A stretch of DNA of 13,121 bases from an uncultured Mesorhizobium sp. (lineage in GTDB: Bacteria > Pseudomonadota > Alphaproteobacteria > Rhizobiales > Rhizobiaceae), in contig CATMOC010000042.1 in the NCBI GenBank assembly GCA_950071955.1, forward strand, positions 1 through 13,121, written 5' to 3'. The notes beneath the pieces are model-generated. The model saw only the letters and a list, made by a program, of their open reading frames with translations. It was not told where the DNA came from and did no database searches. Each line of letters starts with the position of its first letter. Within the stretch, counting starts at the first letter, position 1. Positions 2,821-9,121 of this stretch are shown here, piece by piece. Made by a program: the position numbers and the translations under genes.

Positions 2821-4626
<1,806 letters not shown>

Positions 4627-4635
4627 GGGGCGGGC

Positions 4636-4664
4636 GTATAGAGCATCCGCGGGCAAAACGCCAA
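4636..4664 (-). promoter_or_regulatory. Candidate lepA promoter, very close to the start codon
   Basis: On the minus strand TTGGCG (4659-4664) and CTATAC (4636-4641) are 17 bases apart. This fits the rhizobial housekeeping form CTTGAC-N17-CTATAT fairly well. Transcription would begin at about 4628-4630, only a few bases before the ATG at 4626, giving an almost leaderless message. That agrees with the lack of a ribosome binding site there. Confidence 0.45.
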
Positions 4665-4841
4665 ACGGGTTTTGCGGGGCGTGCGGCAAATGGAATGGGC
4701 GAGTTGCGGTCGCACGAGCAACGTGGCCGCGTTCACGAGACGCACGCCTACCGTGTGCCGACAGGACCGCTCCATCAGTGTTCTATCGTTCGTTTCGCAG
4801 CGCGACCGAAACGCACGAAGGAGCCTTTCTGCAACTTTAAC

Positions 4842-4887: not shown

Positions 4888-6882
4888 ATGAGATACGACT
4901 TCAATCCGCTGGGAGATCCGCGTATCAAGGTTGCCGTTCTCGACGGCCCCGTAGACGTGTCGCATCCTTGCTTTGACGGCGCCACGATCGAGATCCCTTG
5001 GGGCATGCCGAAGACGGCTCCCGGTTCACCGGCCAGCTGCCACGGCACGCATATCGCCAGCATCTTGTTCGGGCAGCCGGGAAGCCCTGTCCACGGACTG
5101 GTCCCATGCTGCCGCGGTTTGATTCTGCCAATCTTCCGAGACACCGGCGAAATGGACGTTTCCTGCACCCAACGCGATCTTGCGCGCGCGATACTCGCTG
5201 CAATCGACCAGGGTGCCCATATCGTTGCCATCTCTGGTGGCGAACCCGGCACGCCAGAAGCCGCAGATGCTTTCCTCGTGGAGGCGATAGGACGATGTCT
5301 CGAGGACAACGTGCTTGTAGTGGCAGCCGCGGGCAACGATGGGGCATCGCTTGCACATATTCCGGCGGCTATGAGTGGCGTGCTGGCAGTCGGAGCTTGC
5401 GATCTAAACGGAAAACCGTTGTCCTTCAGCAACTTCGCGGAAGTTTACACCGACCACGGGATATTGGCACCGGGATCTGAGATCGTTGGTGCCGTCCCGG
5501 GCGGCGGCGTGGTTAGCCGCAGCGGGACCAGCTTCGCGGTCCCGATCGTTGCGGGATTGGCGGCCCGAATGCTTGCCGAAACAGTTCAGCGTGGCGATAT
5601 CCCGAACCCGGTGGCAGTCGGGCGAAGCCTGATCGCCAATGCGGTCGGCTGCGGAGAATATCTTTCGGATCCCGATCGATGCCTTTCAGGGCGCATCAAT
5701 CCTTTTCAGAGTTTGGCGGCGCGAAACACCGGCGCGCGCTCGGAGAGCAGATTTGCAACTGGGAGCGGAGGAATGGTCATGTCGGAATTAGCTGAAGAGT
5801 TGGAGCGGACCGAAGCAGGACCGGGAGGGGTGCGCGCCGCCAGCGACCACTCTCCCGATGAAGTTGGCCGGCAAGATTCTGCCGGTCTCAAGCAATCCGT
5901 CCTTTCGACCTCCGATTGCGGATGCGGATGCGGCGGCAAATGTGCTTCGGACTGCGGATGCGGAGGCAAACCTGCATCGGCTCCACAGAAAGTCTACGCG
6001 CTGGGACAGATCGGCTACGACTTCGGCACAGAAGCCCGCCGCGACTCCATCCGACAGTATATGTCGACGAACACCGGACCCTCTCCGGTGGAGTTGATAG
6101 AGCACTTGCAGGAGCCCGAGAACATTTTCGACGTCGAACGCATCATTTGGACCCTGAATCTAGATGGTGCGCCGATTTATGCGCTGATGCCGAGCGGGGC
6201 TTACGCAGCCGAAGGCTATGCTCGAATCTTCACCGCATATATCAACCAGGTGATTGGTCGAACCACCGAGGACGGAGCCAATAAAGGAAAAGCGAAGAAA
6301 TCACCGTCAAAAGTTACTCTTTTTGCAGTTCCCGGGCAGATATGTGGCTCGGTTCGCCTGATGTCGGGAGAGACGGTGCCGGTCTTGGTGCCCGTGGCTC
6401 GCGCGATCGCGGAGTGGGATGTCGAGGATGCAACCGCGAGGTTCCTCGCGAGGTTTGAAGAAGAAGCGAAAGCAGCAGGCGAAGGGTCCGGTCTTGCGGA
6501 TCGCATTGCGCAGATGGCCGACGATCTCCCGCCTTTCCTCAGCGATTTCCGCAACCTCATCACGCGCAAATATCGGAATCTCGGCATAGCAGGGCGGGAC
6601 CGGGCTCTGAACTTCGCCGCGACATCGGCATTCCGCACGTTTCAGATACTTTCGGAGATCGCCGGACTGAAGCTGATCCTGGACGACATCCTCGTCACGA
6701 GGAGCCCCTCCTGCCGCGCCGGTTCCGAATGCTACGACATCGCTATCCGGTTCTTCCGTGAGGCGGATGTCACTTCAGCGCTCTACACCTTCCAGTTCAC
6801 GCTGGACGTGAGTGATACGGTTCCAGTGAGTATCGGCGAGCTCTCGCAGTGGAGAGAGCGGCCGAAAGCACTCCTCGGATAA
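4888..6882 (+). CDS. PatA/PatG-like subtilisin protease (cyanobactin maturation protease family)
   Basis: The product has 664 residues. Residues 10-280 are a subtilisin (S8) domain with Asp19 in AVLDGPVDVSHPCF, His52 in CHGTHIASI, oxyanion Asn150 in AAAGND and Ser215 in SGTSFAVPI, so the catalytic set is complete. DGPVD-SHPCF and CCRGLILPIF are typical of PatA/PatG proteases. Residues 343-360 form a Cys/Gly-rich linker with six cysteines. From residue 369 follows a PatG-type C-terminal domain: VYALGQIGYDFGTEARRDS, then IIWTLNLDGAPIYAL and LMSGETVPVL. PatA removes the leader of a cyanobactin precursor and PatG cuts and cyclises its core; which of these happens here cannot be told. There is no signal peptide, so it should be cytoplasmic. 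GAGG six bases before the ATG supports this start over two TTG codons upstream. The likely partner is the cysteine-rich peptide 78 bases downstream. Base composition is visibly lower in GC than in neighbouring genes, suggesting transfer. Confidence 0.88.
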   Translation: MRYDFNPLGDPRIKVAVLDGPVDVSHPCFDGATIEIPWGMPKTAPGSPASCHGTHIASILFGQPGSPVHGLVPCCRGLILPIFRDTGEMDVSCTQRDLARAILAAIDQGAHIVAISGGEPGTPEAADAFLVEAIGRCLEDNVLVVAAAGNDGASLAHIPAAMSGVLAVGACDLNGKPLSFSNFAEVYTDHGILAPGSEIVGAVPGGGVVSRSGTSFAVPIVAGLAARMLAETVQRGDIPNPVAVGRSLIANAVGCGEYLSDPDRCLSGRINPFQSLAARNTGARSESRFATGSGGMVMSELAEELERTEAGPGGVRAASDHSPDEVGRQDSAGLKQSVLSTSDCGCGCGGKCASDCGCGGKPASAPQKVYALGQIGYDFGTEARRDSIRQYMSTNTGPSPVELIEHLQEPENIFDVERIIWTLNLDGAPIYALMPSGAYAAEGYARIFTAYINQVIGRTTEDGANKGKAKKSPSKVTLFAVPGQICGSVRLMSGETVPVLVPVARAIAEWDVEDATARFLARFEEEAKAAGEGSGLADRIAQMADDLPPFLSDFRNLITRKYRNLGIAGRDRALNFAATSAFRTFQILSEIAGLKLILDDILVTRSPSCRAGSECYDIAIRFFREADVTSALYTFQFTLDVSDTVPVSIGELSQWRERPKALLG

Positions 6883-6891
6883 TCTTGCCAG

Positions 6892-6941
6892 GCGGAATGG
6901 CGCGGGAACATTCCGCAGGGCTCCGAAACTTCCTGTCCCGC
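6892..6941 (+). promoter_or_regulatory. Stem-loop, possible pseudoknot, between protease and peptide genes
   Basis: Arms GCGGAATG (6892-6899) and CATTCCGC (6909-6916) form a perfect 8-bp stem with a 9-base loop. Loop bases 6902-6907 (GCGGGA) are complementary to 6936-6941 (TCCCGC), so an H-type pseudoknot could form nine bases before the ribosome binding site of the peptide gene (6950-6954). It could tune peptide expression relative to the protease or define an RNA end. No U-run follows, so it is not a standard terminator. Confidence 0.4.
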
Positions 6942-6960
6942 AGATTTACGGGAGTATCAA

Positions 6961-7161
6961 ATGAAGAGGACACTCAACGCTAAGCTCTCCGGTTCAGCCG
7001 ATGTTGCACCGGTCATGAGAGCTTATTCACCCACTGCGCAAAGGCAGAATGTCTCTGCCTCCAGCATCGAATGTGATCTCTGTCACTTCGGTTGCGAACT
7101 GATACCGGATCCTTTCGCGAAGCAAGCCTGTCACATCGCGTGTCAGCACACCGTCTGCTGA
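6961..7161 (+). CDS. Small six-cysteine peptide, candidate substrate of the PatG-like protease
   Basis: The product has 66 residues. A strong ribosome binding site (GGGAG at 6950-6954, six bases upstream) supports the start. The first half (1-35) is basic and Ser/Ala-rich without cysteine, like a leader. The second half has all six cysteines (38, 41, 45, 57, 61, 66), with the near-symmetrical pair CHFGC (41-45) and CHIAC (57-61), a Pro/Asp turn between them, and a final cysteine as the last residue. There is no signal peptide, no LAELSEE-type cyanobactin leader motif and no AYDG-type follower, so it is not a classical cyanobactin precursor. The position directly after a PatG-like protease suggests a precursor peptide cut between leader and core; VSASS before Ile36 is one possible site (inference). 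I do not recognise the family. It could also be a stand-alone cysteine-rich or metal-binding peptide. Confidence 0.72.
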   Translation: MKRTLNAKLSGSADVAPVMRAYSPTAQRQNVSASSIECDLCHFGCELIPDPFAKQACHIACQHTVC

Positions 7162-8170: not shown

Positions 8171-9121
8171 ATGAGCAAGTATCGCAACAACCTACCGCAG
8201 ACGAAGGGCGGCATGTTCCTGACCGACGGCGGCCTGGAGACCACCCTCATCTTCAAGGAGGGGATCGACCTGCCCGCCTTCGCCTCGTTCGTCCTCCTGG
8301 AGACGGACCCGGGCCGCGAAAAGCTGACGGCCTACTACGAGAACTATCTGTCACTTGCCCGCGCGAGAGGCGTCGGCTTCATCCTCGACACGCCGACCTG
8401 GCGCGCGAACCCCGACTGGGGCCGCGAACTCGGCTATGACGCCGACGGCTTGCGGAGGATCAACCAGGCGGGCGTGCGGTTCGTCGAGGGGTTGCGCGAG
8501 AACTGGGAGACCTCCTCCACGCCCGTCGTGCTCAACGGCGTGATCGGCCCGCGCGGCGACGGCTACAAGGCGGGCCGCGTCGAACCGGACGAGGCGCAGG
8601 ACTACCATGCCTTCCAGGTCGGCGTCCTCGCCGGCACGGCGGCCGACATGATCTCCGCGATCACCATGAACACGGTGAACGAGGCGATCGGCATCGCCCG
8701 CGCCGCGAAGGCCGCAGGCATGCCGAGCATCATCTCGTTCACGGTGGAAACCGACGGACGGCTGGCGGACGGCGCCAGCCTGCGCGAGGCGGTGGAGCGC
8801 ACCGACGAGGCCACCGCCGGCGCACCGGCCTACTACATGATCAACTGCGCCCATCCGTCCCATTTCGAAGCCGCGCTCCAAGCCGGCGAGAATTGGCTGG
8901 AGCGGGTGCAGGGCCTCCGGGCGAACGCGTCGGCGAAGAGCCATGCCGAACTCGACGAGTCCACCGAACTGGACGAGGGCGACATCCCCGATCTCGGCCG
9001 CCGCTACTCAAGCCTCACCGCAAAGCACCCGCGGATGCGGATCCTCGGCGGCTGCTGCGGCACCGACCATACCCACATCCGCGCGATCTGCGAGGCCTGC
9101 CTCCCGGCCGAGGCCGCCTGA
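8171..9121 (+). CDS. Homocysteine S-methyltransferase family protein
   Basis: The product has 316 residues, the usual size for the stand-alone zinc-dependent enzymes (MmuM/BHMT type) that transfer a methyl group from donors such as S-methylmethionine or betaine to homocysteine, forming methionine. The visible signatures are LTDGGLETTL at 18-27, LNGVIGPRGDGY at 121-132, the zinc ligand Cys226 in INCAHP, and the paired Cys295-Cys296 in ILGGCCGTDH. The fold is a cytoplasmic TIM barrel. AAAGGA lies about seven bases upstream of the ATG. A DUF1127 gene follows after 31 bases and is probably co-transcribed. The methyl donor cannot be told from the sequence. Confidence 0.93.
   Translation: MSKYRNNLPQTKGGMFLTDGGLETTLIFKEGIDLPAFASFVLLETDPGREKLTAYYENYLSLARARGVGFILDTPTWRANPDWGRELGYDADGLRRINQAGVRFVEGLRENWETSSTPVVLNGVIGPRGDGYKAGRVEPDEAQDYHAFQVGVLAGTAADMISAITMNTVNEAIGIARAAKAAGMPSIISFTVETDGRLADGASLREAVERTDEATAGAPAYYMINCAHPSHFEAALQAGENWLERVQGLRANASAKSHAELDESTELDEGDIPDLGRRYSSLTAKHPRMRILGGCCGTDHTHIRAICEACLPAEAA

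What the first reader, a model, noticed from the sequence alone, without database searches (positions are those of the whole stretch)
4888..7161. Two-gene candidate peptide-maturation locus: PatG-like protease plus six-cysteine peptide
A complete PatA/PatG-type protease, with both subtilisin and PatG-like C-terminal domains, is followed by a short, well-initiated cysteine-rich peptide gene and nothing else of a cyanobactin pathway. The peptide lacks the classical cyanobactin leader and follower motifs and ends in cysteine. This suggests a minimal RiPP-like system in a proteobacterium in which the protease trims, and perhaps modifies, an unusual disulfide- or thioether-prone core.
Basis: partly seen in the sequence, partly recalled or inferred. 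Interest (0 to 1): 0.85.

Follow-up and report, generated by a model that had tools for sequence, protein, structure and literature searches.

The report
Trimming protease with its cysteine-rich peptide
A bacterium of the rhizobia order carries a two-gene cassette in which a cutting enzyme, related to those that make cyanobacterial ring peptides, sits beside the small cysteine-rich peptide that it most likely trims; similar pairs turn up in several other groups of bacteria.

Summary
Observation confirmed; interpretation partly supported. The protease (4888-6882) is complete and above the TIGR03895 cut-off, but its subtilisin domain is PatA-type (leader-removing), not PatG-type (macrocyclising). 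The 66-residue peptide (6961-7161) is real: in an alignment with 34 database relatives, Pro17, Arg20 and five cysteines are invariant and the sixth nearly so. Of 201 genomes, 8 have the full-length protease; 7 of these have strong matches to the peptide families, the eighth has other leader-tagged peptides, and none of the other 193 has a strong match. Leader-tagged small ORFs follow such proteases in six phyla (29 of 44 loci). The predicted cut after Ser34 coincides with the start of a predicted helical hairpin. Best explanation: the protease removes the leader and frees a 32-residue, probably disulfide-stapled hairpin, without ring closure or heterocycles. Similar sites are enriched in the proteases' own linkers, though the window's is degenerate; PatA self-cleavage is already recorded in a PDB title. 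The cassette is probably foreign DNA at the lepA locus. Cleavage, disulfides, export and role are untested.

The parts
4888..6882 (+). PatA-type maturation protease, 664 aa (S8 domain plus PatG_D and PatG_C)
4924..5580 (+). Subtilisin (S8) domain; Asp19, His52, Ser215
5734..5973 (+). Linker, residues 283-362; 283-297 and 308-362 are below pLDDT 50
5899..5967 (+). Linker segment VLSTS/DCGCGCGG...DCGCGG at the place of the RSII-like, core-like site of many relatives; the window's own version is degenerate and was scored as a miss
5989..6249 (+). PatG_D domain
6547..6852 (+). PatG_C domain
6961..7161 (+). Precursor peptide, 66 aa
6961..7062 (+). Inferred leader, residues 1-34; residues 1-30 are of low confidence in the model
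7009..7020 (+). P-V-M-R leader element (residues 17-20)
7048..7062 (+). NVSAS, RSII-like predicted cut site (after Ser34)
   Evidence: PatA consensus from PMC10885120, passages
7063..7158 (+). Predicted 32-residue core, helical hairpin with six Cys
2821..4689 (-). lepA, the flank next to which the cassette sits in six of seven family genomes (not part of the system)

Best explanation
The locus is a minimal leader-removal cassette. The precursor is made with a 34-residue leader that carries the P-V-x-R element shared with cyanobactin precursors. The PatA-type subtilisin cuts after the RSII-like site NVSAS and releases a 32-residue core. The core folds as a helix-loop-helix stapled by up to three disulfides, which I would place at C38-C66, C41-C61 and C45-C57. 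No heterocycles are made and no head-to-tail ring is closed. Shown by computation: protease type, conservation and co-occurrence of the peptides, shared leader element, coincidence of predicted cut and fold boundary. Inferred: the cut itself, the disulfides, export and biological role. That the PatG_D/PatG_C part helps to recognise the leader is a guess.
For: PatA-type S8 domain: 266 bits to PatA 4h6v, 145 to PatG 4aks, with 47 residues of PatG against 10 here; Foldseek ranks PagA and PatA first. Conservation: 35 sequences aligned, P17, R20 and five Cys invariant, the sixth Cys at 90% or more. Co-occurrence: 7 of 7 family genomes with the full protease have strong peptide hits, 0 of 193 genomes without a full protease; Fisher p 3.4e-12 with G159 counted as protease without these families. 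Leader: P[VILM]xR in 34 of 35 precursors, shuffled mean 3.9; RSII-like [VIL]x[PA]S within 6 residues before the first Cys in 21 of 35, shuffled mean 1.0. Survey of 44 loci with an intact protease ORF: 46 strict-motif ORFs downstream, 4 upstream, 3 antisense; 0 in 24 control loci, none of which has an ORF with the PatG_D marker. PatA-like enzymes cut after G(L/V)E(A/P)S (PMC10885120, passages). Fold: helices 35-46 and 51-64, pLDDT about 90 at 41-60. No YcaO match in G002, G004, G035, G071.
Confidence: 0.7

Rival explanations
1. The trimmed core is a metal-binding peptide (Cys thiolates, with two His) and not a disulfide hairpin; the protease then makes a small metallophore or metal chaperone.
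For: CDLCHFGC...CHIAC offers closely spaced Cys and His. A dimeric cuprous-ion-binding periplasmic protein is among the weak fold hits (rank 19). PMC13266932 (listing and abstract start only) reports a copper link for a cyanobactin.
Against: The His residues are not conserved (Arg, Leu, Met and others in relatives). No metal gene was recognised among the 13 window ORFs scanned. The CX3C...CX3C spacing and the hairpin model fit disulfides.
Confidence: 0.25
2. The protease cyclises the core head to tail, as PatG does.
For: It belongs to the PatA/PatG family and shares the C-terminal domains of PatG.
Against: Where PatG has 47 residues (chain 74-120) the query has 10 (36-45); that this stretch is the macrocyclase insertion is recalled. 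There is no follower after the last Cys.
Confidence: 0.05
3. The core is further modified (azoles, thioethers) by enzymes encoded elsewhere.
For: One YcaO match lies on another contig of the window's genome (G000:C84) and YcaO matches exist in G084 and G090.
Against: No YcaO match in G002 (one contig, 100% complete), G004, G035 or G071, which carry the same kind of cassette. Other enzyme classes were not searched genome-wide.
Confidence: 0.1
4. The peptide is an inhibitor or propeptide-like regulator of the protease and not its product.
For: BWI-2c (2lqx), titled a trypsin inhibitor, is among the weak fold hits.
Against: Cores beside one protease are of several distinct types while the leaders share one motif, as expected of substrates.
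Confidence: 0.08

Closest known systems
Cyanobactin pathway: PatA and PagA leader proteases with their E precursors
   Same: PatA-type S8 domain; C-terminal PatG_D/PatG_C as in PatG (4uvq); precursor leader with P-V-x-R; RSII-like cut site. E-type peptides seen in fetched loci (L031, L037, L040) carry the same leader element.
   Different: No PatG macrocyclase, RSI, follower or YcaO beside it; one 32-residue Cys-rich core, predicted to fold, instead of short cores.
PatA/PatG-family proteases annotated in rhizobia (e.g. P0020 Mesorhizobium cantuariense, P0024 Bradyrhizobium ontarionense, P0065 Aquibium microcysteis)
   Same: Same family by NCBI's own naming; the A. microcysteis one has the same kinds of peptides beside it (G002).
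   Different: No title or abstract start listed by my searches describes peptide partners for them.
Plant alpha-hairpinins (Nigellin-1.1, BWI-2c)
   Same: CX3C-xn-CX3C spacing (recalled for the plant family) and helix-loop-helix; 35-36 residues superpose at 1.4-2.0 A.
   Different: Two extra Cys, bacterial, different biosynthesis; no significant score, so likeness of shape and not shown kinship.

Membership tests
PatA/PatG maturation protease (TIGR03895) | Score above the curated cut-off | tested here: met
   470.4 against 421.05 bits
PatA-type leader protease | Catalytic triad and PatA-like S8 domain without the extra PatG stretch | tested here: met
Cyanobactin pathway | P-V-x-R leader element in the precursor | tested here: met
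   only the P-V-x-R half in the window
Cyanobactin pathway | RSII cut signal G(L/V)E(A/P)S | tested here: inconclusive
   Window NVSAS; relatives GVAAS, GVSAS, GVQAS, GVNAS; enriched over shuffles
Cyanobactin pathway | RSI (LAELSEEAL-like) element | tested here: not met
   Absent from the sequence
Cyanobactin pathway | C-terminal follower (AYDG or DDAE-like) | tested here: not met
   Peptide ends in the last Cys
Cyanobactin pathway | PatG macrocyclase | tested here: not met
   One match over cut-off in the window's genome, which is 70% complete; extra PatG stretch absent; one match in the single-contig G002
Cyanobactin pathway | YcaO heterocyclase in the cluster | tested here: not met
   None among 13 window ORFs; no match in 4 of 7 carrier genomes. 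Cyanobactins without it exist (anacyclamides, PMC4663559, passages)
Cyanobactin pathway | Prenyltransferase (F protein) | not tested
   None among 13 window ORFs; no genome-wide search
Alpha-hairpinin | CX3C-xn-CX3C spacing (recalled) | tested here: met
Alpha-hairpinin | Helix-loop-helix fold related to known members | tested here: inconclusive
   Predicted hairpin; matches not significant
Alpha-hairpinin | Two disulfides C1-C4 and C2-C3 (recalled) | not testable with these tools
   Needs mass spectrometry or NMR

The most novel reading that the evidence does not exclude
Cyanobactins are one specialised branch of a much wider superfamily of protease-only peptide cassettes in at least six phyla. 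Their common core is a DUF-bearing PatA-type protease plus precursors tagged with (L)PxQxxPVxR; the orphan PatG_D/PatG_C domains are the receptor of that tag; and copies of the precursors' cut site in the protease's own linker make the enzyme cut itself there, releasing the receptor part.
Probability: 0.3. Interest if true: 0.8.

Novelty: new variant of a known kind. Interest (0 to 1): 0.62.

Why it matters
The paper that solved the C-terminal domain shared by PatA and PatG left its role open; the isolated PatG domain did not bind the patellamide precursor in NMR (PMC4259220, parts 1-3 of 4 read). I saw no later assignment in the passages and listings I read. Here the domain and one leader element travel together across phyla, in the window without the rest of the cyanobactin pathway, which gives a two-protein system in which the domain's role can be tested. 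It also points to a large set of genetically simple peptides: Cys-rich cores, the window's type predicted to fold as a hairpin, and, in other loci, Cys-free cores that look amphipathic by eye.

Tried and rejected
Chance ORF: rejected. PatG-type macrocyclase: rejected on the missing stretch and follower. Haem c attachment at CDLCH: rejected, the His is not conserved. Rfam and tRNA scans of the window: nothing. Pfam and NCBIfam scans of ten precursors: no match over a cut-off. Three NCBIfam models touched two of the ten below cut-off (CopL_fam E 0.08, Moor_cyan_RiPP E 0.98, and TIGR03678, the patellamide leader, E 0.042, 14.2 bits against 39.6, on the leader of an L016 precursor). Fold libraries gave no significant match for the peptide. 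Literature: Houssen 2012, Agarwal 2012 and two further papers are not held. Six papers were opened: PMC4259220 (parts 1-3 of 4), and PMC4603692, PMC10885120, PMC4663559, PMC12710340 and PMC13252029 (passages). The listings show no title on self-cleavage in this family.

Rows dropped before counts; 11 of 55 loci had no intact ORF with the PatG_D marker and were left out. Of the remaining 44, 29 had a strict-motif ORF within 3 kb downstream and 15 had none; of the 15, L032, L055, L058, L060 and L077 have under 800 bases downstream, and L035 has a precursor that the strict pattern misses. About equal lengths were searched downstream and upstream (118 and 120 kb). L079 was left out of the controls because one search showed a leader-motif ORF in it; one search then showed that it carries a PatG_D-bearing protease, so it had been misfiled. 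The other 24 controls have no ORF with that marker. With the looser pattern the counts were 94 same-strand and 16 opposite in 55 loci, 6 and 7 in 25 controls; of 133 full proteases, 59 representatives under 65% identity were counted. RSII-like sites were also enriched in the preceding 45 residues (32 of 41, shuffled mean 8.1), which weakens the idea of one placed cut site; the sixth A4 sequence, a shorter paralogue in G002, was left out of the dN/dS pairs; two of six A3 pairs gave no dS. Weak hits (E 9.9e-4 to 0.01) in other genomes: 6, 9 and 8 genomes, some with stops. I took them as chance, though that is more than the two or so expected at the threshold.

Full report
What is there. The window holds a 664-residue protease (4888-6882, plus strand) followed after 78 bases by a 66-residue peptide gene (6961-7161), both with plausible ribosome-binding sites. 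The protease has Peptidase_S8, PatG_D and PatG_C domains and scores 470 bits against TIGR03895, cut-off 421. Upstream is a divergent lepA; downstream, on the other strand, a TetR-type regulator. Thirteen window ORFs were scanned with Pfam and none other belongs to a cyanobactin pathway.

Which protease. The S8 domain aligns to PatA (4h6v, 266 bits) and PagA (4h6w, 255 bits) far better than to the PatG macrocyclase (4aks, 145 bits); ahead of the region of the catalytic His, PatG has 47 residues where the query has 10. Foldseek on the model ranks PagA and PatA first and also finds the PatG domain of unknown function (4uvq); by sequence 4uvq matches residues 368-656. The title 'PatG-like' should therefore read PatA-type. 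The two halves are joined by a linker of low predicted confidence.

Is the peptide real. A single-sequence search found one relative besides itself. A seven-sequence profile found 35 proteins including the window's own. Their alignment keeps Pro17, Arg20 and five Cys invariant and the sixth Cys at 90% or more, mostly with the spacing C-x2-C-x3-C-x10/11-C-x3-C-x3/4-C. Some peptide and protease hits come from contigs of identical length (4278, 2776, 2548, 9125, 151173 and 6109263 bases), which suggests, without proving it, that they are neighbours. For the 151173-base contig both were seen on one locus, L035; for the 6109263-base contig both lie side by side in G002.

Co-occurrence. Of 201 genomes (the window's and 200 relatives), 12 have a protease hit at 1e-20: 7 full-length in the same family, 1 full-length in another family (G159, in two pieces of one ORF) and 4 that match the subtilase part only. 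Three peptide families were searched in the same 201. The window's type (A2) gives strong hits (best hit 1e-17 or better) in 6 of the 7; a second type (A3) in 6; a third (A4) in 5. Every one of the 7 has at least one, and no other genome has a hit better than 9.9e-4. G159 has two small ORFs with the leader MKSPIQAAPALR and a different Cys core, one about 0.1 kb and one 1.1 kb downstream. The Fisher value of 3.4e-12 ignores kinship between genomes, and the profiles were built largely from these loci, so the absence elsewhere is the informative half.

The leader. Most precursors of the other family genomes begin roughly M[RK][LF]PxQ[SA]xPVxR. In fetched cyanobacterial loci, ordinary cyanobactin precursors carry the same element, for example MNKKNILPAQGKPVIR...LAELSEEAL in L031. 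In 44 loci with an intact protease ORF, 29 have at least one ORF with the strict motif within 3 kb downstream. The totals are 46 downstream, 4 upstream, 3 antisense, and 0 in 24 control loci that have no ORF with the PatG_D marker. The record titles place the positive loci in Cyanobacteria, Proteobacteria, Actinobacteria, Bacteroidetes, Acidobacteria and Clostridia, some of them single MAGs. Sixteen of the 46 are a second conserved type that resembles the small conserved proteins of cyanobactin clusters; I take them for PatC from memory, and sorted them by a pattern of my own. The window's own peptide retains only the P-V-x-R half.

The cut site. PatA-like enzymes cut after G(L/V)E(A/P)S (PMC10885120, passages). 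The window has NVSAS just before the core; relatives have GVAAS, GVSAS, GVQAS and GVNAS. The looser form [VIL]x[PA]S ends within six residues of the first Cys in 21 of 35 precursors, against a shuffled mean of 1.0 (11 of 17 representatives against 0.43). In the cross-phylum survey it is present in 16 of 30 non-PatC-like precursors, shuffled mean 3.1.

Selection on a sister peptide. In the A4 type, ten pairwise comparisons among five genomes give dN 0 to 0.022 in the 31-residue core against dS 0.17 to 1.6, while the leader has dN 0.22 to 0.62. The core is what selection holds still, the reverse of the hypervariable cores reported for cyanobactins (PMC4603692, passages). This was not measured for the window's own peptide type.

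The protease's own linker. In 46 of 59 non-redundant proteases the last 45 residues before PatG_D contain an RSII-like site, shuffled mean 9.0 and maximum 19, in many directly followed by DCGCGG. The preceding 45 residues are enriched too (32 of 41, shuffled mean 8.1), so no single position is marked. The window's linker (VLSTSDCGCGCGG) is degenerate and counts as a miss. The PDB title of 3zxx reads 'Structure of self-cleaved protease domain of PatA', so self-cleavage in this family is known; where it occurs I could not read. A general self-cutting site in the linker is a prediction.

How the window got it. Window LepA is 94% identical to those of G002 and G004, but its protease is only 41-43% identical to theirs, while theirs are 84% identical to each other. 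Third-position GC is 0.65 in the window's protease and 0.59 in the peptide against 0.94 in lepA; the two congeners' proteases are at 0.83 and 0.85. Of the four congeners searched, the closest by LepA, G001 (98%), has no cassette, and G003 has none either. In six of seven family genomes the cassette abuts lepA; in G084 it lies about 17 kb away. A cassette of foreign origin that replaced or joined the lepA-side locus explains this best.

Novelty. No title or abstract start listed by seven literature searches describes these peptides; the library lacks most subscription journals. NCBI already names such rhizobial proteins PatA/PatG family cyanobactin maturation protease. I rate it a new variant of a known kind: a PatA-type protease with P-V-x-R-tagged precursors, but without macrocyclase, heterocyclase, RSI or follower, and with a conserved Cys-rich core. 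Since RSI, follower and macrocyclase were tested and not met, it should not be called a cyanobactin.

Noticed in passing
L016 6037-6213, L017 5497-5673, L018 5955-6131, L019 8499-8675, L020 6324-6500: A sister precursor whose 31-residue core is almost unchanged between genera while its leader drifts; suggests a fixed target and not an arms race.
   Followed up: partly
L025 8614-8868: A cyanobacterial (Calothrix MAG) precursor with a core like the A3 type of the Hyphomicrobiales, so a similar core occurs in two phyla (compared by eye).
   Followed up: no
L027 8293-8725, L048 8055-8213, L059 7950-8099, L075 2264-2440: Leader-tagged peptides with Cys-free cores that follow G(V/I)(E/N)(A/P)(S/A) and look amphipathic by eye, beside the same protease family. 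Described only.
   Followed up: no
L028, L031, L036, L037, L040, L041, L044 and others, just downstream of the protease: A second conserved small protein (MRLPxxSPPVKRP...GANYNDPAAF), PatC-like by recollection, carries the same leader element; 16 of 46 downstream hits. It may be a substrate or decoy of the protease.
   Followed up: no
L022 9021-9149 and 10001-10129; L057 8025-8162: A further shared core (QSGCCVxVAGVC...) in two alphaproteobacterial lineages, in L022 as two near-identical copies.
   Followed up: no
window 4888-7161: Third-position GC of protease and peptide is far below that of lepA and of 8171-9118 (0.65 and 0.59 against 0.94 and 0.91): probable foreign origin.
   Followed up: partly
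L023 (G000:C192): A second subtilase in the window's genome matches TIGR03895 weakly (53 bits, below cut-off).
   Followed up: no
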